A DNA stretch of 21,011 nt from Alphaproteobacteria bacterium (GTDB taxonomy: Bacteria; Pseudomonadota; Alphaproteobacteria; JAEULC01). The DNA lies in the NCBI GenBank assembly GCA_020851015.1, contig JADZDN010000139.1, forward strand, positions 1 to 21,011, in the 5' to 3' direction. Positions 2,854 through 11,907 of the stretch are shown here, piece by piece. The first letter of the stretch is position 1, and each line of letters begins with the position of its first letter. The notes below the pieces were generated by a model. The model made no database searches. It had not been told where the DNA came from and worked only from the letters and a program-made list of their open reading frames with translations. The position numbers were made by a program, and so were the translations under genes.

Positions 2854-3546
2854 CTACGCCGACGGCCCGTCGGATAGCGGCCGCAATGGAAACGGCGCGA
2901 CGGCGTTGGTTGTCCGCGCCATCTCGGCATCCACTGCGGCGAATGCGCGCCCTGTCGTACCGGAATCGCGGAGCGCGCGCGCGACAAGCTCGGCGACGTC
3001 GCCGCGATTGACGAACCCGTGTGCTTCCGGGTCCGCGATCAGGACGCCGCGACCGGTTGCCGGCGCGGAACGCAGGCCTCCCGGCCGGACGATGGTCGCC
3101 GAGGGAATCGTGCGCTTGAGGTGGTCCTCGGCCCGCGTCTTGGCATCGACCGCCTCCCCGAATGCCGCTATGGCGCGTTCGGATCGAAACGGCGCCATCT
3201 CGCCGCACCCGATCGACGTGACGAGGACGAACCGTTCGACAGGATGGGTCGCGGCTCGCTCGATGACGTTGACATTGCCTTCATGATCCACATAGCGCCC
3301 GTCGTCGGCACGCCCGCCCAAGGTGGAGACGACGTCGCCGCCTGCGGGCAGATGTGCGAATGCGTGCGCGACATCGGACCTCGAAAAGGCGTCCCCGCGC
3401 ACGATCCGAACGCCCAAGCTTTCCAGACCGGAGCTCTCCGCCTGCGAGCGCAGCATCGCCAACACGGGAACATTTCCGACTCTCAGCAGTCGCGCAAGCG
3501 CCAAGCCGACGCCGCGACTCGCTCCAAAGATCATGACCGGACGCAA
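2854..3546 (-). CDS. chuY: ChuY-like NAD(P)-binding reductase (atypical SDR)
   Basis: About 230 aa. An NAD(P)-binding Rossmann protein of the atypical SDR/NmrA-like type, with GASRGVG near the N-terminus, TSIGCG near residue 110, a lysine in AKTRAED where extended and atypical SDRs keep the active-site lysine, and IVRPGGL. Its position as last gene after hutW and hutX matches ChuY of enteric haem operons, which reduces anaerobilin; function is inferred mainly from this context. Start: I prefer the TTG at 3546, because it supplies the residues RPV before MIFGASRG and so a full first beta-strand; the ATG at 3534 (226 aa) is the alternative. Either start lies within 15 bp of the hutX stop. The open frame runs further upstream to 3876, but only as a shadow of hutX. 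Confidence 0.75.
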   Translation of the reverse strand: MRPVMIFGASRGVGLALARLLRVGNVPVLAMLRSQAESSGLESLGVRIVRGDAFSRSDVAHAFAHLPAGGDVVSTLGGRADDGRYVDHEGNVNVIERAATHPVERFVLVTSIGCGEMAPFRSERAIAAFGEAVDAKTRAEDHLKRTIPSATIVRPGGLRSAPATGRGVLIADPEAHGFVNRGDVAELVARALRDSGTTGRAFAAVDAEMARTTNAVAPFPLRPLSDGPSA

Positions 3547-3547
3547 A

Positions 3548-4078
3548 TCACTTGGTCCCGGATGCCACGGCGAACCGGCGTTCGAGTCGGGCAAAGCGCT
3601 CGACCTGATCGGCCTTGAGCCGACGCTCCCGGTCCCTTCCAACGAATATCTTGAACATGGCCTCTCCATCGGCGTTGCAAAACTGGACCGAGAGTGTGTC
3701 CGTTCCCATGAACGGGCGCCGCAGAAACGCGATCGCGCGGCAATTCCCGTGGCGCAAGTGCCCGCGCAAGGGGCCGCCGCCGTTGAGATTGTAGAATCCA
3801 TGTCGCAGTACCCCCGCAGGCAAGCTGCCTTCGAACTCGAGAATGACGTCCTTCGTGTGAACAATCGTCGTAACATCGCCCCAGCCGGAAATGTCCTGCA
3901 TCACGTCCACGAAGTGGTCGCCGGATATGCGTTTGCACATTCCGGCGGGCAGACATTCCATGACGGTCAGAAGCGGCAAATCGTGCTGGCCGGCCAGCAT
4001 CTCCAGCACGCCATCCGGTCTGTCCGCGAGTTCCCGTCGCACGTTGGCAAGTTTCTCCGATACGCCGATCTCATTCAT
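3548..4078 (-). CDS. hutX: Intracellular haem-utilisation protein HutX/ChuX
   Basis: 176 aa. A small cytoplasmic haem-binding protein of the HutX/ChuX family, thought to carry haem or protect the cell from it before degradation. The central region HTKDVILEFEGSLPAG (74-89), followed by GFYNLNGGGPLRGHLR (94-109), is the family signature, and the C-terminal stretch MFKIFVGRDRERRLKADQVERF (141-162) forms the last strand and helix. Length is normal (about 165-180 aa). It lies 51 bp after hutW and directly before the chuY-like gene, so the order hutW-hutX-chuY reproduces the enteric chuWXY operon. Control is probably by the operator upstream of hutW. Codon use is less GC-biased at third positions than in flanking genes. 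Confidence 0.92.
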   Translation of the reverse strand: MNEIGVSEKLANVRRELADRPDGVLEMLAGQHDLPLLTVMECLPAGMCKRISGDHFVDVMQDISGWGDVTTIVHTKDVILEFEGSLPAGVLRHGFYNLNGGGPLRGHLRHGNCRAIAFLRRPFMGTDTLSVQFCNADGEAMFKIFVGRDRERRLKADQVERFARLERRFAVASGTK

Positions 4079-4129
4079 GGCACGCGTCCGTTACCTGTCG
4101 TTTGTCGGAAAGGAGGCCGCATCGCGATG

Positions 4130-5470
4130 CTACGCGCTCGCGGTCGGGGCGGTTGCGGCAACAATGTCGTTGAATGCCGCTATCAGGTTGCCATACCAGA
4201 AGCGACCGGCCGCGGTCAGATGAACCGTGCCATCCGCGACCAGCAACAGCCCGGCCGTCTGCCATTGCTCCAGCAGCGGCGCGAAGAAACTTCCCGCATC
4301 CGGTATGTGCGGGATATCGAGGCCGCGGAGGTCCAATCGCCCGACTTCGAATCCCGCGGCGATATGGTTGCGCGCAGGCTGGAGATCGTCCGCCACGCTC
4401 ATCCCGGCGAGCGGCTTGCGCCCTGCGGCGATCTCGTCCTTGTATTGCTGCAGTTTGCCGGCAAGACTGTAGCTGTACCGGCCTATGGATCCGCCCGCGC
4501 CGGATCCATAGGCCAGACAATCGGCGCCCTGTTTGATGCGCAGATTGTAGACGTTGCGCTCTTGCGGCGTCCGCGCCCAGTGGCTGTTGCTGATTTGGCT
4601 CCAGGCATTGGCCCCGAGAAACTCGGCGCCGATCGTGTACATCGCGGCCATCTCCGGAAACGCGAAAGGCCGGAACTTGCCGGCGCCGGCCGCCTGGAAA
4701 AGCGGCGTTCCCGGAATGAGATTGAGCCCGTAGAGGTCGACGCCGTCCGGCGCCAAATCGACCGAAATGCGCAGGTCCTCCCGCCAAATCTCTTCGGTTT
4801 GTCCCGGCAGCCCGTAGAGCAGGTCGATGACGAGCGCCATGTGCTTGCGCTCGCGGATACCCGCAAGAAAGCGTATCGCCTCGTCCTTCTCGGCGCGGCG
4901 CCCCTGGCGGCGGCGGACCGCAGTATCGAAGCTCTGAACGCCGATCGAAATGCGGTTCACGCCTGCATCGATGCAAGCGGCAATCTTCTCGTCATCGAAA
5001 TGAATGATCCGGCCTTCGACGGTGATTTCGCATTCGGCGGCCAAAGGCAGATTTCGCCTCACCGTGCGGAGAATTCGTTCCAGGTCTTTGGCCGCAAGCG
5101 CGCTCGGCGTTCCGCCGCCGACGTAGACCGCCTGTATCGGTTGATCTCTGATAGCCGGCTCCTCCGCCTCGCGCTCGATCTCGGAAATCACGAGATCCGC
5201 ATATGCCGATGCCTCCTGCGGCGTATAGGCGTTGCGATAGAACCCGCAAAAGAGACAATGATTGGCACAGAACGGCACGTGGATGTAGGCAAGGCGACCG
5301 TGTTGCATTCGATGGCCCGACATCAAGCGGAACCACGCGGCGGGAATGTCTTCGGGCGCGAGCGGCTGCCGATGCTGCCAGGGGATTAGGGCTCTTCGCG
5401 ATGCGAAGGCATTCGCAACGATATCTCCTTCCTGGCTGGCGAAGTAGCGCGTGAAGTCGGCGAAGCTCAT
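4130..5470 (-). CDS. hutW: Anaerobic haem-degrading radical SAM methyltransferase HutW/ChuW
   Basis: 446 aa from the ATG at 5470. A HemN/HemW-like radical SAM enzyme. ChuW opens haem without oxygen, releasing iron and forming the methylated linear tetrapyrrole anaerobilin. The iron-sulphur motif CxxxCxxC lies at about 68-75 (HVPFCANHCLFCGFY), followed by YVGGGTPSAL, the ISIGVQSFD strand and IDLLYGLPGQT, with a HemN-like C-terminal half. HutW and HemN are told apart here mainly by the adjacent hutX and chuY and by the C-terminal sequence, so misnaming as coproporphyrinogen dehydrogenase is the main risk. The ATG at 5494 would add eight residues but sits almost inside the operator and has no visible ribosome binding site; 5470 gives the usual family length. 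Confidence 0.88.
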   Translation of the reverse strand: MSFADFTRYFASQEGDIVANAFASRRALIPWQHRQPLAPEDIPAAWFRLMSGHRMQHGRLAYIHVPFCANHCLFCGFYRNAYTPQEASAYADLVISEIEREAEEPAIRDQPIQAVYVGGGTPSALAAKDLERILRTVRRNLPLAAECEITVEGRIIHFDDEKIAACIDAGVNRISIGVQSFDTAVRRRQGRRAEKDEAIRFLAGIRERKHMALVIDLLYGLPGQTEEIWREDLRISVDLAPDGVDLYGLNLIPGTPLFQAAGAGKFRPFAFPEMAAMYTIGAEFLGANAWSQISNSHWARTPQERNVYNLRIKQGADCLAYGSGAGGSIGRYSYSLAGKLQQYKDEIAAGRKPLAGMSVADDLQPARNHIAAGFEVGRLDLRGLDIPHIPDAGSFFAPLLEQWQTAGLLLVADGTVHLTAAGRFWYGNLIAAFNDIVAATAPTASA

Positions 5471-5499
5471 GCGACTTGCTCGGGCACCTGGCATTAGAT

Positions 5500-5518
5500 G
5501 CAAATGCGACTCATTTGC
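5500..5518. promoter_or_regulatory. Fur-box-like operator of the hutW operon
   Basis: GCAAATGCGACTCATTTGC reads as hexamers in the classical 6-6-1-6 Fur arrangement: GCAAAT, GCGACT, C, ATTTGC. Compared with the E. coli consensus GATAATGATAATCATTATC it matches at 12 of 19 positions, and the outer seven bases on each side are perfectly complementary. It is nested inside a wider imperfect palindrome (TAGATGCAA at 5495-5503, TTGCATCTA at 5521-5529). It lies just downstream of the predicted -10 element and 30 bp before the hutW ATG, where binding would block transcription. Iron control of haem-use genes is well established; the actual regulator here (Fur, Irr or another family member) is inferred. 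Confidence 0.72.
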
Positions 5519-5523
5519 TATTG

Positions 5524-5553
5524 CATCTAGTCCTGGGCGCGAAAATTAGTCAA
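5524..5553 (-). promoter_or_regulatory. Sigma70-like promoter of hutW operon
   Basis: On the minus strand, TTGACT (5553-5548) resembles a -35 element (5 of 6). After an 18-bp spacer comes TAGATG (5529-5524), a weak -10 element (3 of 6). The predicted start of transcription falls in the Fur-box-like site at 5500-5518. The element is also well placed in the 124-bp gap between hutW and the upstream MttB-family gene. Confidence 0.5.
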
Positions 5554-5594
5554 GCAGTCGGCGAAATCGGCCGCGCATTTCGCGCTGCGACAAA

Positions 5595-7148
5595 TCACCC
5601 CACGGCGGAGCCGCGCCGCCGACCCCGGCGCTCGCGCGCCGGGCCGGCGTCGAGGCTTCCCCAGCGCTCCGCCGGCACGGAGTCCCCCGCGACAAGCCCG
5701 GCCGGCAGCCCGGCGCGCACCCGCGCATCGACCGCGGGCGGCAGCGCGTACGGGTTGGGACGCGACAGCAGCCCCTTGGCCCGGGCCAGCGCGCGGCCAT
5801 GCGCATCCGTGGCGCCCTGGTCGTGCCACAACTCCCGCCGCTCGCGGTCGGCCACCGTGGGCAGGAACGCGGCGGTCTTCATGCACGCCACCGTGTTCGG
5901 GCTTGCCACGTACATGCCCGCCGGGCCGGCCGCGCGAATCTCGTCCAGCGTGGCATCGACGTCGCCCAGCGCCAGGTGCTGGCGAAGGCGCTTCAGCATC
6001 TGCGCGATCTCGTTGTCGATCACGAGCTGGCCGAAATCGAATTCCATCAGCGCACCGAGCAGACCGCCGATGGCGATGAAATCGATGCCCGCCGTCGCGG
6101 CCAGGGCCGGCGACATCGCCTTCTCATAGCCGGCCTGGGCATCGCCCAGCTTCGAATTGGTGAGGCCGAGATAGGATCCCGCCGGCACGCGGTAGAAGCG
6201 CGCCATCTGGGTCAGCGCCATCGCCAGGATGCCGGTCTCGACCGCGCCCGAAGCATAGGCGCCCGACCGCATGTCGCCGACGACCGGCAGGTGGTTGTAG
6301 ATCAGCGGCGTGCCCAGCCGCGACATCTGCGCCAGGACCGCCGCCGCCAGCCATTCGGCGTTGCTCTGGACCAGCATGCCCGCCATCGACAGCGGCGCGC
6401 TGATGCCGCCGATCGGCGCCAGCGTGCCATAGGCCGGCAGCCCTTCCTCGGCATAGAACATCAGCATCTCGGTCGAATCGAAGTCCATCGTCAGCGGCGA
6501 AACGATGGCGCAGTAGCCGAAGGTGATGAAGGGCCGGCGGCGGAATTCCGCCTCGTCCCCGGCCACCAGCGCGCCCAGGCGCATCACCTGGCGCGCCTCG
6601 CGCGCGTCGATCACCGAGGTGCGCACCGGCTTGGCGCAGTTCTTCAGCGCCGGATAGAACCGCGACAGGCTGAACTGGTCGGCCGGCGCGTCGTCGGCCA
6701 GGACGGAGATCGAAAACACGTCGATGCCGTCGAGCAGGCTCACCAGGTGCCCGATCCGCGCGATGTCGTCGGAGCGCGAGCGGCGCTCCGCCCCGCTGTC
6801 CGGATCGATCAGGTTGGGCGCCGAGCTCGCGGTCGCCACCACCAGCGCGTCGTCGGGGATCGTCTTGCTGAAACGTTCGTCGCGGGCATGGAAGGTGAAG
6901 CGCGGCGGGATCGCGGCGCGAAACTCCTCGACCACGGCGCGCGGGAACCGGACGATCTCGCTGTCGCTCGCCGTCCGGCAGCCGAAATGCGCGAACCGCT
7001 CGCGCGCCCGGCGATTGCGGACCAGCAGTCCGATCTCTTCCAGCACGTCGAGCGAGCGGTCGTGGATTTGCTTGACCTGCGCTGCGCTCAGCAGCTCCGC
7101 GTGGCGCGCGAACATGGGCTCTTCGCTGGCTGTTGCTCGGGCGCCCAT
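5595..7148 (-). CDS. MttB-family (trimethylamine methyltransferase-like) protein, non-pyrrolysine
   Basis: 517 aa, close to the family's usual 480-500. Recognised from the N-terminal helix AQVKQIHDRSLDVLEEIGLLV (24-43), the central SPLTMDFDSTEMLMFYAEEGLPAYGTLAPIGGISAPLSMAGM region (217-258) and the C-terminal HGRALARAKGLLSRP. Archaeal MttB moves a methyl group from trimethylamine to a corrinoid protein and carries pyrrolysine at an in-frame TAG; this gene is open throughout, as in the glycine betaine and related demethylases. The substrate is not predictable. No corrinoid protein, corrinoid-reactivating protein or second methyltransferase is in the window. The ATG at 7115, preceded by a GAAGAG-like site, is a credible alternative start. 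It is the last gene of the ABC importer operon, 58 bp after the preceding gene. The last 15 residues are an arginine-rich tail. Confidence 0.88.
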   Translation of the reverse strand: MGARATASEEPMFARHAELLSAAQVKQIHDRSLDVLEEIGLLVRNRRARERFAHFGCRTASDSEIVRFPRAVVEEFRAAIPPRFTFHARDERFSKTIPDDALVVATASSAPNLIDPDSGAERRSRSDDIARIGHLVSLLDGIDVFSISVLADDAPADQFSLSRFYPALKNCAKPVRTSVIDAREARQVMRLGALVAGDEAEFRRRPFITFGYCAIVSPLTMDFDSTEMLMFYAEEGLPAYGTLAPIGGISAPLSMAGMLVQSNAEWLAAAVLAQMSRLGTPLIYNHLPVVGDMRSGAYASGAVETGILAMALTQMARFYRVPAGSYLGLTNSKLGDAQAGYEKAMSPALAATAGIDFIAIGGLLGALMEFDFGQLVIDNEIAQMLKRLRQHLALGDVDATLDEIRAAGPAGMYVASPNTVACMKTAAFLPTVADRERRELWHDQGATDAHGRALARAKGLLSRPNPYALPPAVDARVRAGLPAGLVAGDSVPAERWGSLDAGPARERRGRRRGSAVG

Positions 7149-7206
7149 CAGACGACCGCAGCGGGAAGGGATGCAAGCCCTCTGGTCGCCGGCCCGGTGC
7201 GACCGA

Positions 7207-7854
7207 TCAGCGCGTCCCGCTTTGCCGGAACGCCCCGTCGGCCCAGGCCAGGAAGCGATCGAGGAATCGCGTGGTCGCCGGCATGAAATGGCTGCCGTGG
7301 TGATAGAACGGGTCGAGCGTCGATACGATCAGCCGGCCCGGCGCGCTGACGCGGTCGTCGTAAAGCAGGCAACCGGCATCGCCGCCCCCGATCGTCGCGG
7401 CCGGATCCTCGACCACGATCAGCCGCTCGGCGCCCGCGGGTGGGTGCAGCACGCCGTGGTAGTGCCACACCGCGTCCGCGCCATCGAGATGCGCGAACAG
7501 CGGATGATCCGGCCGGGCGACGCGCAGGCCGGGATCGGCGCTGCGCTCGAGCCACCACCAGAAATTCGTCGGCCGGAACGACCATTCGACGCCGGGCAGC
7601 CAGTCCTCGCCGTGCGTCTCGGCGAACACGATCAAGGCGCCGCCGCGCTGGAGATGGTCGAGCAGGACGCGCCGCCGGGCGCGCAGCACGGCGGCATGCG
7701 TGCGATCCGGCACGATCAGCGCGTCGATATCGGCCAGGTCGGGCGTGTCCAGCTCGGGAGCGTAGATCACGCGGTCGAAATGCCGCCGGTAGCGCTCGCC
7801 ATGGATCGCATGGCGGTGATAGGCGGTGCCGGAGTCGAGGATGGCGAGCGTCAT
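7207..7854 (-). CDS. ThuA/class I amidotransferase-like protein (second of tandem pair)
   Basis: 215 aa. Its alternating pattern of hydrophobic strands (MTLAILDSG, ADIDALIVPD, RGGALIVFAETH, PGRLIVSTLDPFYHHG) suggests a flavodoxin-like alpha/beta fold as in ThuA and class I glutamine amidotransferases. I see no amidotransferase Cys nucleophile: the strand that carries Cys in the neighbouring paralogue reads IVFAETH here. It aligns along its length with the upstream protein, including a DHPLFAHLD segment (116-124). The ATG at 7854 overlaps the upstream stop (ATGA); the frame is open further back to 8025, but as arginine-rich shadow. Histidines and aromatics are concentrated at 126-137 and 180-190, a possible binding site. 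Function is unknown; operon position suggests a role with the ABC importer and the MttB-family protein. Confidence 0.75.
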   Translation of the reverse strand: MTLAILDSGTAYHRHAIHGERYRRHFDRVIYAPELDTPDLADIDALIVPDRTHAAVLRARRRVLLDHLQRGGALIVFAETHGEDWLPGVEWSFRPTNFWWWLERSADPGLRVARPDHPLFAHLDGADAVWHYHGVLHPPAGAERLIVVEDPAATIGGGDAGCLLYDDRVSAPGRLIVSTLDPFYHHGSHFMPATTRFLDRFLAWADGAFRQSGTR

Positions 7855-8486
7855 TGCGCGGCCATGGCTTGCGCGTCCGCCGGACCGGCGGCGATCCAGT
7901 CGAGCAGCTGCGGCCCCATCCGGCTGGCGCTGCTGTCGGCCTCCAGATAGGCCCACAGGTCCGATCCGGCGTGCACCAGCAGGCGGCCGCCGGCGGACGG
8001 CCGGCATTCGAAATCGACCGGCCATCGCTGCTTGCCCAGCGTGTTGATCACGCGCGCTCCCGGCGGCGGCGGATTGCAGCCGCGGCCATAGAAGCCGGCG
8101 ACGCCCTTGCGGAACGTCAGGTGCTGCGCGTCGACGCCGCTCCAGACCGGATGGGGCTGTTCCAGGTTCACGCGCAGGTCATCGATCCGATAGCCGGGAA
8201 TCGGCGTGAAATCCCGCAGCTCGTCCATGATCGGATAGGCGACGTGGCCGCAGAACACGATCGTGCCGCCGCTGGCCAGGAAGGCTTCGAGCTGGCCGCG
8301 CTGCCGGGCGAGCAGGCGTTGGTCGGCATGCAGGGTGACGAGCAGCCCGCGATAGCGCGCCAGGTCGATGCGCGGCAGGTCGTGCATCGGCGCCGCGTCG
8401 ACGCGCCCCCCCAGGTCGGGGCGGCGCAGCAGCACGTTGACGCCGCCCTCGGTCTGCTCGCAATCTAGCAGCAGCGCGTCGATCAT
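7851..8486 (-). CDS. ThuA/class I amidotransferase-like protein (first of tandem pair)
   Basis: 211 aa. Predicted alpha/beta protein with strands at MIDALLLDCE, YRGLLVTLHAD, GGTIVFCGH and GGRLLVHAG. The IVFCGH segment (76-81) sits where class I amidotransferase-like folds carry their active-site elbow, so C79 and H81 are candidates for catalysis or metal binding, but there is no full Cys-His-Glu triad that I can assign. PHPVWSGVD (111-119) is the segment shared with the next gene. The ATG at 8486 overlaps the stop of the binding-protein gene by 4 bp, and its own stop overlaps the next ATG, so three genes are translationally coupled. I recognise the fold type only; the specific function is not known. 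Confidence 0.75.
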   Translation of the reverse strand: MIDALLLDCEQTEGGVNVLLRRPDLGGRVDAAPMHDLPRIDLARYRGLLVTLHADQRLLARQRGQLEAFLASGGTIVFCGHVAYPIMDELRDFTPIPGYRIDDLRVNLEQPHPVWSGVDAQHLTFRKGVAGFYGRGCNPPPPGARVINTLGKQRWPVDFECRPSAGGRLLVHAGSDLWAYLEADSSASRMGPQLLDWIAAGPADAQAMAAQ

Positions 8487-9442
8487 CCGGCGAAGGCCAT
8501 CGGGTGGATCAACTCGCGCTTCAGGTCGATCGCGCGCGGGATCATCTTGTTGTCCAGCATGAAGCGCTGGTCGGCCTCGAGGTTGGCGACATCGGCCTCG
8601 GTGATGCGCGGCGAGAAGTCGTACCAGGGCAGCATCCGGCGCGCCTCGGCCATCGAGATCTTCTGCTCGTCGGCGGCGATCTGCAGGGCCTGATCGGTCT
8701 CCTGCTTGAGGAAGGCAAGCGACTCGCCATTGGCCGCCAGGTAGCGATCGACCAGTTCGGGGTATTGCTGCAGGAAAGCCTCCCGCACGGCGATGACCGA
8801 GGTGGGCACCAGCAGGCCGTCTGCGGTGGCGATGACGCGGCCGCCCGCGTTCTCCACCGCGAACATGTGATTGCCGGCCAGCGTGGCGGCGTCGATGCTG
8901 CCCGCCAAGAGCGCGGCGCGCGCGGCCGGCAGGTCCATGTTGATGTACTGCACGTCGTCGAGCTTCAGGCCCTTCGACACCAGCGCTGCGGCGAGGGTCT
9001 GGTTGAGCGTGGTGCCCACGGGCCCGCCCACGCGCTTGCCCTTCAGGCCCTCGATGTCGGCCGGGCCGTTGGCCATGGTCATGATGGCGAAGGCCTTGGG
9101 CGAGCGGCTGAACGCGCCCACCACCTTGACCGGCACGCCGTTGACGCGCCCGAGGATCGCCGAGGCGCCGCCCAGCACGCTGGCGATGTCGACCGCGCCG
9201 GCCGCGATCGCCTGGATCTGCTGCGCGCCCGAGGTGATCTCCGGGTATTCGACCTGGATGCCTTGGGCCTGGAACGCCTTGTCGAGGATGCCGCGCTTGC
9301 GCGCGACGATCGTGGGCACGTTGAACGGCGCGGTCACGTAGGTGACGCGGATCGACTTGGGCGCGGTCTGCGCCAGCGACGGGCGGGCCGCGATCAGGGC
9401 AAGGCCGGCGGCGAGCGCGGCGCGACGGGTGAGCATGCTCAT
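8483..9442 (-). CDS. ABC transporter substrate-binding protein, NitT/TauT (SsuA-like) type
   Basis: 319 aa. A periplasmic binding protein of the nitrate/sulfonate/taurine group. The N-terminus MSMLTRRAALAAGLALIAARPSLAQ is an export signal with an RR pair before the hydrophobic core, so Tat export is possible; cleavage near residue 24. Family features: PFNVPTIVARKRGILDKAF (39-57), the GAVDIASVLGG strand (82-92), LKGKRVGGPVGTTLNQTLAAALVSKGL and AGSIDAATLAGNHM. Ligands for this family range from sulfonates to thiamine precursors and aromatic acids, so the substrate is not predictable. A strong ribosome binding site, GAAGGAG, ends 5 nt before the ATG. It follows the ATPase gene by 14 bp and overlaps the next gene by an ATGA. 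Confidence 0.92.
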   Translation of the reverse strand: MSMLTRRAALAAGLALIAARPSLAQTAPKSIRVTYVTAPFNVPTIVARKRGILDKAFQAQGIQVEYPEITSGAQQIQAIAAGAVDIASVLGGASAILGRVNGVPVKVVGAFSRSPKAFAIMTMANGPADIEGLKGKRVGGPVGTTLNQTLAAALVSKGLKLDDVQYINMDLPAARAALLAGSIDAATLAGNHMFAVENAGGRVIATADGLLVPTSVIAVREAFLQQYPELVDRYLAANGESLAFLKQETDQALQIAADEQKISMAEARRMLPWYDFSPRITEADVANLEADQRFMLDNKMIPRAIDLKRELIHPMAFAG

Positions 9443-9456
9443 CGGAACTCCTTCTG

Positions 9457-10209
9457 TCAGGCGGGAACGGACTCGCCGGTTACGCGCGCCAGGATGCGCT
9501 CGCGCAGGCGAAGCAGTTGCGGATCGACGGGATCGCGCGGATGCGGGCGGTCCACGGCCAGGTCGTCGACGATGCGGCCGTGCTCCATCACCAGCACGCG
9601 CTCGGCCAGGATCGCGGCTTCCTCGACGTCATGGGTGACGAACAGGATGGTGGGGCGCTTGGCCAGCCAGATGCGCACCAGTTCGCGCTGCAGCGTGCGG
9701 CGGGTGAAGGCATCGAGCGCGCCGAACGGCTCGTCCATCAGGATTACGTCGGCGCCGATCGCCAGCGCGCGGGCCACGGCGGCGCGCTGCGCCATGCCGC
9801 CCGAGAGCTGCTCGGGCCGCGCGTCGCGGAACGCCGTCAACCCGACCAGCGCGAGCGCGTCGTCGATGACCGCGCGGACCGCGTCTTCGTCGCGCTCGGC
9901 GTGCAGCGCCAGGCGCACGTTCTCGGCGACCGTCAGCCAGGGCATCAGCCGCGGTTCCTGGAACACCATGCCGACGGGACGCCGGGCCGTGTCGCCGTCG
10001 CGCGCGCCGCGACGGCGGATATGGCCGCCGCTCGGCTCGTCCAGCCCGGCGATCAGGCGCAGCAGCGTGGTCTTGCCGCAACCGCTGCGCCCGACCATGG
10101 CGGTCAGGCTGCCGGCCGCCAGCGACAGCGACACCCCGTCGAGCGCGCGCACCGCGTGCGCGCCCAGGGCGTAGTGCTTGCGCAAACCCAGGATCTCAAG
10201 CACGGCCAA
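9457..10209 (-). CDS. ABC transporter ATP-binding protein, NitT/TauT (SsuB-like) type
   Basis: 250 aa. The cytoplasmic ATPase that powers the importer. Complete set of motifs: Walker A GRSGCGKTT (40-48), Q-loop FQEPRLMPW (83-91), signature LSGGMAQR (135-142), Walker B VILMDEP (155-161), D-loop GALD (163-166) and the switch histidine in VTHD (191-194). The PRLMPWLTVAENV stretch is characteristic of the SsuB/TauB group. The gene starts 14 bp inside the end of the permease gene, so the two are translationally coupled. Confidence 0.95.
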   Translation of the reverse strand: MAVLEILGLRKHYALGAHAVRALDGVSLSLAAGSLTAMVGRSGCGKTTLLRLIAGLDEPSGGHIRRRGARDGDTARRPVGMVFQEPRLMPWLTVAENVRLALHAERDEDAVRAVIDDALALVGLTAFRDARPEQLSGGMAQRAAVARALAIGADVILMDEPFGALDAFTRRTLQRELVRIWLAKRPTILFVTHDVEEAAILAERVLVMEHGRIVDDLAVDRPHPRDPVDPQLLRLRERILARVTGESVPA

Positions 10210-11014
10210 GCTCCGCCGCGTCGCGGATCCAGGGCGCCAGGCGCCTCGTCAACACACGGCCGACGCGGTCGAGCGCCACGCCCAGGATGCCGATGGCCAG
10301 GATGCCCACCAGCACGATGTCGGTGCGCGCGAGCTGCTCGGCGTTGACGATCATGTAGCCGAGGCCGGAGGAGGCGGCGATCAGCTCGGCGCCCACCAGC
10401 GCGCGCCAGGAATAGCCGAAGCCCAGGCGCAGCCCGACCACGATCGACGGCATCGCGGCGGGCAGCACGATGCGCCGGACGATTTCTCGCCGCGGCAGGC
10501 CGCAGACCCGTCCGACCTCGATCAGCTTGGGATCGCACTGCGCAATCCCGCCGGCGGCGCTGAGAAAGATGGGAAAGAACGCGGCCAGGATGATGACCGC
10601 CAGCTTCTGCGCCTCGCCGATGCCGAGCCACAGGATCAGCAGCGGAATCAGCGCCAGGGGCGGCACGTGGCGCAGGAACTCGACGACGGGGTCGAGGGCC
10701 CGCGCGAGCCCCGGCCACAGACCGAACGCGATCGCGAGCGGCAGGGCCAGCAGGCTCGCGCCCGCGAAGCCGCCCGCGATCCGTGCCAGGCTGACCAGCA
10801 GATGACGCAGCAAGGTTCCGTCGGCGATCAGGTCGACCGCCGCCAGGGCGACGGTGAACGGCGAGGGCAACAGGAAGCTCGGCGCCAGCCCCAGCGCCGT
10901 CGCGGTCCACCATGCCGCCAGCAGCGCCAGCGACACGGCCAGGCCGGTCGGCAGCCGGCGCGCCGGCCGGGGCGCCAGGGCATTCGCCGGACTGTATATG
11001 CGACTTACTCGCAT
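10196..11014 (-). CDS. ABC transporter permease, NitT/TauT (SsuC-like) type
   Basis: 272 aa from the ATG at 11014. Integral membrane subunit with about six segments (roughly 24-44, 80-103, 114-133, 137-155, 190-212, 232-252). The EAA loop that docks the ATPase is EVGRVCGLPRREIVRRIVLPAAMP (166-189), and PSFLLPSPFTV (45-55) is typical of SsuC/TauC proteins. It is the first gene of the importer-MttB operon. The start is doubtful: codons 1-7 from 11014 lie inside the operator-like hexamer array at 10994-11018. If 11014 is used, the leader must be very short or absent. A GTG at codon 27 is a possible but poorer choice because it cuts into the first membrane segment. Confidence 0.9.
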   Translation of the reverse strand: MRVSRIYSPANALAPRPARRLPTGLAVSLALLAAWWTATALGLAPSFLLPSPFTVALAAVDLIADGTLLRHLLVSLARIAGGFAGASLLALPLAIAFGLWPGLARALDPVVEFLRHVPPLALIPLLILWLGIGEAQKLAVIILAAFFPIFLSAAGGIAQCDPKLIEVGRVCGLPRREIVRRIVLPAAMPSIVVGLRLGFGYSWRALVGAELIAASSGLGYMIVNAEQLARTDIVLVGILAIGILGVALDRVGRVLTRRLAPWIRDAAELGRA

Positions 11015-11018
11015 TTGC
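10994..11018. promoter_or_regulatory. Fur-type hexamer array at the start of the importer-MttB operon
   Basis: Plus strand hexamers GTATAT, GCGACT, T, ACTCGC, ATTTGC give a 6-6-1-6-6 array, with a 17-bp inverted repeat, ATGCGACTTACTCGCAT (10998-11014), at its centre. It shares the GCGACT hexamer, the single spacer base and the ATTTGC hexamer (followed by TA) with the hutW operator, which has the form 6-6-1-6. The resemblance to E. coli Fur boxes alone is modest (10 of 19 in the best register on the minus strand), so the argument rests on likeness to the hutW site. The array covers the annotated start codon of the permease. Confidence 0.55.
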
Positions 11019-11033
11019 TAGGTAAAGCACGCC

Positions 11034-11075
11034 GCACTGCCCCGCCGCAAGGGTTCAGTTGCCGCAGGGCAGTGC
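11034..11075. other. Inverted repeat upstream of the importer operon
   Basis: GCACTGCCC (11034-11042) and GGGCAGTGC (11067-11075) are perfect 9-bp inverted arms around 24 bp, inside which GCAA (11047-11050) and TTGC (11059-11062) form a second short stem. It occupies the 104-bp gap between the dioxygenase stop and the permease. It could be a terminator for the upstream operon or a regulatory structure, but no T-run follows on the minus strand; a T6 run (11084-11079) precedes it instead. Confidence 0.4.
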
Positions 11076-11118
11076 CGGAAAAAAGCTTAAGATACCGAGC
11101 GGTCGCCGACCAACGGGC

Positions 11119-11907
11119 TTAGCCCCAGGCGTAGGCCTGCATGCCCAGGTTGCCGTGGCTGAAGCTGGAATGGAGGCGTCGGCCCGAGGCTGAGCCGCCC
11201 GCGCCCATCGCCGCGAACAGCGGCAGGAAATGCTCGTCGGTCGGATGGGCCATGACGCCGCCGGGGCTGCGCTCGCGGTAGTGCGCCAGCTCGTCGACAG
11301 CCCCCTCCGCCACCCGTGCATCCAGCCAATCGGCGAAACCGACGGCCCAGTCCTCGGGCTTGGCGTCGCCCCAGCGCAGCGCGCGCAGATTGTGGATCGC
11401 GCTTCCGCTTCCCAGCACCAGCACGCCATCGCGGCGCAGCGGGGCGAGCGCGCGGCCGATCGCCAGGTGGTGCGCCGCACCGGCCTGGGGCTGCACGGAA
11501 AGCTGCAGCACCGGCACATCGGCGTCCGGATACATCACCTTCATGGGAACCCAGGCGCCGTGGTCCAGCCCCTGGCGCGGATCGACGGCGCAGCTAAAGC
11601 CGGCCTCGCCAAGCGCATCGCGGACGCGCGTGGCCAGCGCCGGCGCGCCCGGCGCCGGATAGCGCATCGCGTAGAGCGCGCGCGGGAAACCGTAGAAGTC
11701 GTGGATCGTCTCGGGCCGGTCCGCGGCCGACACGCTGGGCGCGGCGGTCTCCCAGTGCGCGGAGACGCAGACGACGGCGCTCGGCCGGCCGAGCTGCGCG
11801 CCGAGGCCCGAAAGGAACGCAACGGCCGGCCCGCCTTCCAGCAGCAGGGTCGGCGCTCCATGCGACACGAAGACGGCCGGCGGCGCGCCGGCGGCGGGAA
11901 ACGTCAT
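11119..11907 (-). CDS. DODA-type extradiol ring-opening dioxygenase (YgiD-like)
   Basis: 262 aa, normal for this family. A LigB-fold protein related to 4,5-DOPA dioxygenase and E. coli YgiD, which open catechol-type rings between carbons using a metal bound by histidines. Visible are FVSHGAPT with H16, VSAHWE with H51, the central LDHGAWVPMKVMYP (114-127) with H116, and the C-terminal HPTDEHFLPLFAAMGA (221-236) supplying further histidines. The natural substrate cannot be read from sequence. The ATG at 11907 overlaps the stop of the DUF2336 gene (ATGA), so it is the last gene of the GGDEF-DUF2336 operon, an unexpected place for an aromatic dioxygenase. Confidence 0.92.
   Translation of the reverse strand: MTFPAAGAPPAVFVSHGAPTLLLEGGPAVAFLSGLGAQLGRPSAVVCVSAHWETAAPSVSAADRPETIHDFYGFPRALYAMRYPAPGAPALATRVRDALGEAGFSCAVDPRQGLDHGAWVPMKVMYPDADVPVLQLSVQPQAGAAHHLAIGRALAPLRRDGVLVLGSGSAIHNLRALRWGDAKPEDWAVGFADWLDARVAEGAVDELAHYRERSPGGVMAHPTDEHFLPLFAAMGAGGSASGRRLHSSFSHGNLGMQAYAWG

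What the first reader, a model, noticed from the sequence alone, without database searches (positions are those of the whole stretch)
5595..11014. Unrecognised operon: NitT/TauT ABC importer, paired ThuA-like proteins and an MttB-family protein
Five minus-strand genes plus the importer permease form one tightly packed unit: 14-bp overlap, 14-bp gap, ATGA overlap, ATGA overlap, 58-bp gap. An importer with two small proteins of unknown function and a demethylase-like enzyme suggests uptake and processing of one compound, perhaps a quaternary amine or other methylated molecule. The gene set does not match any pathway I know, and the operator suggests iron control. What is seen is the gene content and coupling; the shared function is inference.
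Basis: partly seen in the sequence, partly recalled or inferred. Interest (0 to 1): 0.78.

Follow-up and report, generated by a model that had tools for sequence, protein, structure and literature searches.

The report
Iron-controlled import operon with twin proteins
A bacterial operon with an iron-type control site joins a small-molecule importer to a twin pair of undescribed ThuA-fold proteins; the twins recur in other bacteria beside three unrelated kinds of importer, while the demethylase-like gene that first drew attention looks like a local neighbour.

Summary
In detail: six minus-strand genes lie at 5595-11014 with the stated junctions. The first five recur elsewhere; MttB does not. ThuA1 and ThuA2 match no Pfam or NCBIfam family, are paralogues of each other with a class-I-glutamine-amidotransferase-like fold, and are adjacent in this order in 60 of 66 loci, window included. 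The pair sits beside an SsuABC-type (15 of 63 pairs), FecBCD (33) or Dpp/nickel-type (13) importer, with 11 or more importer changes on a quick tree. A Fur-type palindrome taken from the window was tested elsewhere: 10 of 15 sites fell at starts of system genes (1.15 expected), then 6 of 6 in a second set; it is present at such starts in 13 of 65 loci. Of nine SsuABC-type loci without it, 7 carry a loosely matched Irr-like box. Iron control is supported; the quaternary-amine reading is not. Best reading: an iron-starvation import-and-processing module whose ThuA pair handles the imported compound in the cytosol; substrate and chemistry are inferred. The next operon is chuW-chuX-chuY (heme degradation).

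The parts
10999..11013 (-). Fur-type palindrome TGCGACTTACTCGCA (operator of the operon; overlaps the annotated PERM start)
   Evidence: exact match to TGCRANTNANTYGCA; same motif enriched at system gene starts elsewhere
10196..11014 (-). ABC importer permease, TauC/SsuC type (exact start uncertain)
   Evidence: PF00528 8e-29; TauC model 9e-52, below its cut-off
9457..10209 (-). ABC importer ATPase, SsuB/NrtD type; TTG start, 14-bp overlap with permease
   Evidence: PF00005 1.6e-32; SsuB-type model 2.8e-57, below its cut-off
8483..9442 (-). Substrate-binding protein, NMT1/SsuA family, with signal-peptide-like N-terminus (by eye)
   Evidence: PF09084 1.7e-22; TIGR01728 161.9 bits against cut-off 163.5; closest PDB SsuA 2x26
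7851..8486 (-). ThuA1: first of the conserved pair; class-I-GATase-like fold; motif GVAGFYGRG; no signal-peptide-like N-terminus seen
   Evidence: no Pfam family; alignment A2; model pLDDT 90.4; fold matches
7207..7854 (-). ThuA2: second of the pair; ThuA-like fold; motifs NFWWW and DPFYHHGSxFMPATTRF; no signal-peptide-like N-terminus seen
   Evidence: no Pfam family; alignment A1; model pLDDT 89.8; fold matches 4jqs, 2gk3, 1t0b; paralogue of ThuA1
5595..7148 (-). MttB-superfamily protein (no in-frame stop); local neighbour, not part of the conserved module
   Evidence: PF06253 2.7e-88; not found beside the pair in related loci
5505..5519 (-). Second Fur-type site (1 mismatch), at the start of the hut/chu operon
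4130..5503 (-). ChuW/HutW radical-SAM heme-degradation enzyme (adjacent, separate operon; start uncertain)
   Evidence: TIGR04107 521 bits, cut-off 400
3548..4078 (-). HutX/ChuX heme carrier (adjacent operon)
   Evidence: TIGR04108 207 bits, cut-off 110
2854..3540 (-). ChuY-like NAD(P)H-binding protein (adjacent operon; start set by me inside a longer ORF)
   Evidence: PDB ChuY 5guy 1e-31, ShuY-like 5ffq

Best explanation
The five genes 7207-11014 are an iron-starvation import-and-processing module. When iron is short, Fur leaves the operator at 10999; the NitT/TauT (SsuABC)-type importer brings a small organic compound into the cytosol, where ThuA1 and ThuA2, paralogous class-I-GATase-like proteins coupled by an ATGA overlap and probably working as a heteromer, modify or break it down. 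The constant part across bacteria is the ThuA pair (35 of 66 loci add a weakly FmdE-like partner); the importer is interchangeable (SsuABC, FecBCD often with a TonB receptor, or Dpp/nickel type). The imported compound is most likely an iron-acquisition ligand (a foreign siderophore-like chelate, or a heme-related compound) whose processing releases or spares iron. MttB is a downstream passenger. Shown by computation: gene content, junctions, conservation, importer switching, fold, operator enrichment. Inferred: Fur and Irr as the binding proteins, one transcript, heteromer, substrate and chemistry.
For: ThuA1 directly upstream of ThuA2 in 60 of 66 loci. Importer classes A 15, B 33, C 13, none 2 of 63 pairs; fewest changes 11; one-clade origin of class A rejected (quick tree). 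Fur-type site in L001-L045: 10 of 15 sites with at most 1 mismatch at starts of system genes, 1.15 expected, p 1.4e-8; at 2 mismatches 14 of 40 (3.06 expected); 20 shuffled palindromes reach at most 2. In L084-L103: 6 of 6. Irr-like box: 6 of 15 sites at 3 mismatches in L001-L045 (p 5e-4) and in 7 of 9 class A promoter stretches without a Fur-type site at 4 mismatches (300 resamples: mean 0.93, max 4). Classes B and C carry importer types that include iron-complex and metallophore carriers: FecCD, Peripla_BP_2, TonB receptor; SBP_bac_5 with nikA/CntA models below cut-off. Fold and paralogy. Heme/iron neighbours: chuWXY in the window; an ABM-family monooxygenase resembling IsdG/IsdI in 5 of 66 loci.
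Against: No substrate is known for any member. SsuABC-type importers are best known for sulfonates and similar anions (recalled), and the window SBP is closest to SsuA. The Fur-type site stands at system starts in only 7 of 45 and 6 of 20 loci; 52 of 65 have none there within 1 mismatch, and of the two exact sites in L001-L045 one (L026) lies outside the start regions. L001, the nearest relative, has neither a good Fur- nor Irr-type site. The Fur and Irr consensus are partly recalled, the 4-mismatch Irr limit was set after a first look, and enrichment is not binding. The pair is rare: 5 of 289 genomes of the class, with only the best candidates scored. Class B receptors resemble heme receptors but lack a histidine in the FRAP-NPNL stretch in all 10 read of 18.
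Confidence: 0.62

Rival explanations
1. Heme or tetrapyrrole salvage: the module imports and processes heme, a porphyrin or a linear tetrapyrrole, working beside heme-degrading enzymes.
For: chuW-chuX-chuY lies immediately downstream with a like operator; an ABM-family monooxygenase (best PDB hit the uncharacterised TT1380 7.7e-15, then IsdI/IsdG about 2e-5) lies in 5 of 66 loci and in L032 between ThuA1 and ThuA2; the class B TonB receptor of L038 is closest in the PDB to PhuR and ShuA.
Against: HutW above its cut-off is found in only 4 of 48 genomes with the pair, the HmuQ-like enzyme in 31 of 48 and rarely close by; in 10 of 18 full-length class B receptors the FRAP-NPNL stretch could be read and none has a histidine between the motifs (L035 has one inside its FRHP motif); SsuABC-type importers are not known to carry heme (recalled); iron genes often cluster.
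Confidence: 0.22
2. Uptake and demethylation of a quaternary or methylated amine, with MttB as the key enzyme.
For: MttB lies 58 bp downstream on the same strand with no terminator-like site between; closest PDB relatives are glycine betaine and trimethylamine methyltransferases.
Against: MttB is not beside the pair in the 65 other loci and has no match at 1e-30 in 21 of 25 pair genomes; the close orthologue lies in a genome without a ThuA1 match; no corrinoid-binding family appears among the 22 window proteins scanned; Fur control is not expected for methylamine catabolism (recalled).
Confidence: 0.07
3. Ordinary sulfonate/taurine-type nutrient import with two helper proteins that happens to respond to iron (iron-sparing or sulfur response), not an iron-acquisition system.
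For: Importer and SBP belong to the SsuA/TauA group.
Against: The same pair is coupled to FecBCD- and Dpp-type importers, with the same operator type found in all three classes; no sulfonate monooxygenase was noticed, though none was searched for.
Confidence: 0.13

Closest known systems
SsuABC / TauABC (NitT/TauT-family ABC importers)
   Same: gene set permease-ATPase-SBP, SBP closest to SsuA
   Different: all three score below the named NCBIfam cut-offs shown; iron-type operator; coupled to the ThuA pair
ThuA (PF06283, trehalose utilisation) and other class-I-GATase-like proteins
   Different: no Pfam ThuA hit; no profile similarity of ThuA2 to a true ThuA protein; the pair forms its own two-member family
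FecBCD/TonB siderophore, heme or B12 uptake operons
   Same: class B relatives of the module contain FecCD, Peripla_BP_2, ATPase and often a TonB receptor, some with Fur- or Irr-type sites
   Different: the window lacks them; the known operons, as recalled, carry no ThuA pair or FmdE-like protein
hut/chu/hmu heme utilisation
   Same: adjacent in the window (chuWXY), similar operator; HmuQ-like enzyme near a few relatives
   Different: ThuA1/ThuA2 match no heme enzyme family; HutW in only 4 of 48 pair genomes
MttB-superfamily corrinoid methyltransferases (for example glycine betaine methyltransferase)
   Same: MttB gene product at 5595-7148
   Different: below the TIGR02369 trimethylamine equivalog cut-off (325 against 525); not linked to the module elsewhere

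Membership tests
NitT/TauT (SsuABC-type) ABC importer | NMT1/SsuA-type SBP, BPD permease and ABC ATPase encoded together | tested here: met
NitT/TauT (SsuABC-type) ABC importer | membership of a named sulfonate, taurine or nitrate equivalog | tested here: not met
   scores shown lie under the curated cut-offs (SBP 161.9 against 163.5 for the SsuA subfamily)
ThuA (PF06283) | PF06283 match | tested here: not met
   no match for the window proteins or for the members of A1 and A2 scanned; hhalign of A1 to a true ThuA 0.1%
ThuA-like / class-I-GATase-like fold | the fold | tested here: met
Fur regulon | Fur-type operator at the promoter, recurring in relatives | tested here: met
   window exact site; enrichment at system starts, though only 13 of 65 other loci carry it
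Fur regulon | Fur binding and iron-dependent expression | not testable with these tools
   needs EMSA and transcripts
MttB-based methylamine catabolism | MttB-family enzyme conserved with the importer | tested here: not met
MttB-based methylamine catabolism | cognate corrinoid protein encoded nearby | tested here: not met
   no B12-binding family among 22 window proteins scanned; it could lie elsewhere in the genome, which is not held
Heme uptake system (hmu) | heme-coordinating His in the TonB receptor FRAP/NPNL stretch (class B relatives; residue recalled) | tested here: inconclusive
   stretch read in 10 of 18 full-length receptors, none with His between the motifs; 8 not found by the pattern
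chuWXY anaerobic heme degradation (adjacent operon) | ChuW, ChuX and ChuY homologues in a row | tested here: met
FmdE (PF02663) for the partner protein of classes B and C | PF02663 match | tested here: inconclusive
   3 of 15 members match weakly, best E 0.004

The most novel reading that the evidence does not exclude
ThuA1-ThuA2 (with the FmdE-like protein where present) is a new kind of cytosolic enzyme that takes iron-bearing or iron-scavenging ligands apart after import, portable between three unrelated importer superfamilies.
Probability: 0.35. Interest if true: 0.82.

Novelty: new variant of a known kind. Interest (0 to 1): 0.6.

Why it matters
How bacteria free iron from imported chelates in the cytosol is known for few enzyme types (ferric reductases, esterases, heme oxygenases; recalled). 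A conserved protein pair linked to iron-type operators, whose importer class changed 11 or more times on a quick tree, would mark an undescribed processing step and gives a concrete target: two soluble proteins of about 210 residues with confident models. It also suggests that some NitT/TauT importers annotated as sulfonate or taurine carriers may belong to iron metabolism.

Tried and rejected
Quaternary-amine pathway through MttB: rejected as the core. Riboswitch control (B12, Ni/Co, Moco): no Rfam riboswitch at gathering scores in the window and 13 of the 45 loci then held. NikR-type operator: scanned at 3 mismatches, hits scattered, not followed. Classical ThuA/trehalose function: no family or profile match. 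In L085 a true ThuA, a sugar-type SBP and a LacI regulator lie beside a class A system (like clusters in L086, L087), but no role for ThuA1/ThuA2 follows. PDB sequence searches with the A1, A2 and A3 profiles gave only chance-level hits, best E 0.038. Literature searches for ThuA or FmdE with Fur, siderophore or TonB found no paper on this pair (open-access library only; one search listed PMC12016528 with one mention of ThuA, not opened; one search showed 12 of 24 papers, none with ThuA; the one paper, PMC10308882, was seen in passages and uses fmdE for another gene). HmuQ-like link: picked after seeing it among shared neighbours, so it is only suggestive. Class labels are mine: L033 is labelled C on an ATPase alone (contig end), the Dpp genes of L025 are about 7 kb away, L038 and L099 hold both FecBCD and Dpp genes and were counted as B. 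Rows dropped before the tree: L021, L044, L045 (no full pair). The MttB class search and the ThuA1 searches scored only the best candidates per genome, so their tallies are lower bounds.
Full report
What is there. The minus strand of the window carries PERM 10196-11014, ATP 9457-10209, SBP 8483-9442, ThuA1 7851-8486, ThuA2 7207-7854 and MttB 5595-7148, with a 14-bp overlap, a 14-bp gap, two ATGA overlaps and a 58-bp gap. Pfam and NCBIfam place the importer in the NitT/TauT (SsuABC) group, below the named cut-offs, and the last gene in MTTB; ThuA1 and ThuA2 match no family at 1e-3. There is no promoter-like match in 5400-11150 and one terminator-like match, inside PERM, so a single transcript is plausible but not shown. 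No whole genome is held for the window.

The pair. Protein searches found 608 relatives of ThuA2 and 133 of ThuA1 at E 0.001 or better. AlphaFold models are confident (mean pLDDT 89.8 and 90.4). ThuA2 matches ThuA-like and other class-I-glutamine-amidotransferase-like structures (4jqs, 2gk3, 1t0b); ThuA1 matches the same broad fold more weakly, without an entry named ThuA among the 50 shown. Profile comparison shows that the two are paralogues (95.2%, E 2.6e-8), while a true PF06283 ThuA shows no similarity to ThuA2. The label ThuA-like is right for the fold and wrong for the family. Neither shows a signal-peptide-like start (by eye), so both are probably cytosolic (inference).

Relatives. One scan of species genomes gave 45 loci. 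Whole-genome searches found ThuA1 in 5 of 289 genomes of the class of G001, 5 of 23 of its order and 19 of 248 of the Bosea-containing family (in 65 and 67 only the best candidates per genome were scored). I fetched 20 longer regions, L084-L103. Over window, L001-L045 and L084-L103, ThuA1 lies directly upstream of ThuA2 in 60 of 66; the other six are L021 (ThuA2 alone), two fragments (L044, L045), two pairs in the reverse order (L088, L103) and one split cluster (L032).

Three importers. The pair lies beside an SsuABC-type importer (class A: window and 14 loci), FecCD plus Peripla_BP_2 plus ATPase, often with a TonB receptor (class B: 33), or a Dpp/nickel-type importer (class C: 13); 2 of 63 show none. 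On a tree of 63 concatenated pairs the importer label needs at least 11 changes with the two unlabelled rows left out, and a single origin of class A is rejected (p 3e-105). This is a quick tree with 13 weak forks, and the labels are mine. The window groups with L001 (99*). A third protein of about 175 residues, weakly FmdE-like (3 of 15 members, best E 0.004), is found in 35 of 66 loci, none of them class A; in 5 of 14 class A genomes it lies elsewhere, in G383 and G415 beside FecCD and Peripla_BP_2 genes.

Iron control. The window operator at 10999 is an exact TGCRANTNANTYGCA (pattern set from the window site and a recalled Fur consensus before the other loci were scanned). In L001-L045, 10 of 15 sites with at most one mismatch lie within -200/+100 of system gene starts, which make up 7.6% of bases (p 1.4e-8); of the two exact sites one lies in and one (L026) out; at two mismatches 14 of 40 (3.06 expected); 20 shuffled palindromes reach at most 2. 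In L084-L103 all 6 such sites lie at system gene starts, five of them exact (position judged by me). Sites occur in all three classes, but only in 7 of 45 and 6 of 20 loci. Nine class A loci lack the site; 7 of the 9 have an Irr (ICE)-like box within 4 mismatches upstream of the permease, against 0.93 expected and a maximum of 4 in 300 resamples (limit and stretches chosen after a first look). In L001-L045 the ICE pattern at 3 mismatches gives 6 of 15 sites at system starts (1.15 expected). I read passages found by term in PMC3751524, PMC2631029 and PMC9368920 on iron control in other bacteria; the term search found no ThuA in the main text of the first and third, and I could not read a letter consensus there.

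MttB. The window MttB has no counterpart beside the pair in the 65 other loci, some of them short (L023 holds a 27% relative about 5.4 kb away). L001 ends the row at ThuA2 and goes on with an elongation-factor-G gene. Of 25 pair genomes 4 have an MttB match at 1e-30. One close orthologue (69%) occurs in G313, which has no ThuA1 match; its neighbours are a TauE-type gene on the other strand and, 2 kb upstream, an amino-acid-type binding protein, with no NitT/TauT genes on the 20-kb piece. In the class, 12 of 289 genomes match at 1e-60, at 34% identity or less. No corrinoid-binding family appears among 22 window proteins scanned. I conclude that MttB is a neighbour.

Heme link. Directly downstream, under its own Fur-type site at 5505, lies chuW-chuX-chuY. 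An ABM-family monooxygenase resembling IsdG/IsdI (HmuQ-like; name recalled) lies in 5 of 66 loci (L022, L032, L034, L090, L093), in L032 between ThuA1 and ThuA2 in a row of partly overlapping genes. Against heme as the general substrate: HutW proper is in 4 of 48 pair genomes, the HmuQ-like enzyme in 31 of 48 but rarely near, and none of the 10 class B receptors whose motif stretch could be read (of 18 full-length) has a histidine between the motifs.

Verdict. A real, recurring operon core with iron-type operators in part of its members, an undescribed protein pair as its constant part and an exchangeable importer. Function beyond 'imported compound linked to iron supply' is inference.

Noticed in passing
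2854-5519: chuW-chuX-chuY heme-degradation genes in a row with their own Fur-type site at 5505.
   Followed up: partly
11119-11907: LigB / 4,5-DOPA-dioxygenase-like gene just upstream on the same strand, ahead of the operator.
   Followed up: no
L029:7546-10621, L033:1866-5465: Two ThuA1-ThuA2 pairs in tandem in Devosia MAG loci.
   Followed up: no
L032:77-4521: ThuA1, a DUF2325 protein, an IsdG/HmuQ-like monooxygenase, a small ORF, ThuA2 and an LCM-type methyltransferase lie in one row, several overlapping.
   Followed up: partly
L017:7307-8266: Nitrile hydratase beta subunit upstream of the module; members of the same sequence cluster in L007 and L009.
   Followed up: no
L085:1205-7162: Sugar-type SBP, a true ThuA (PF06283) and a LacI regulator beside the class A module; like clusters in L086 and L087.
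   Followed up: partly
L013, L028: The pair in MAGs labelled Chloroflexaceae and Sulfurovum; transfer or binning error not resolved.
   Followed up: no
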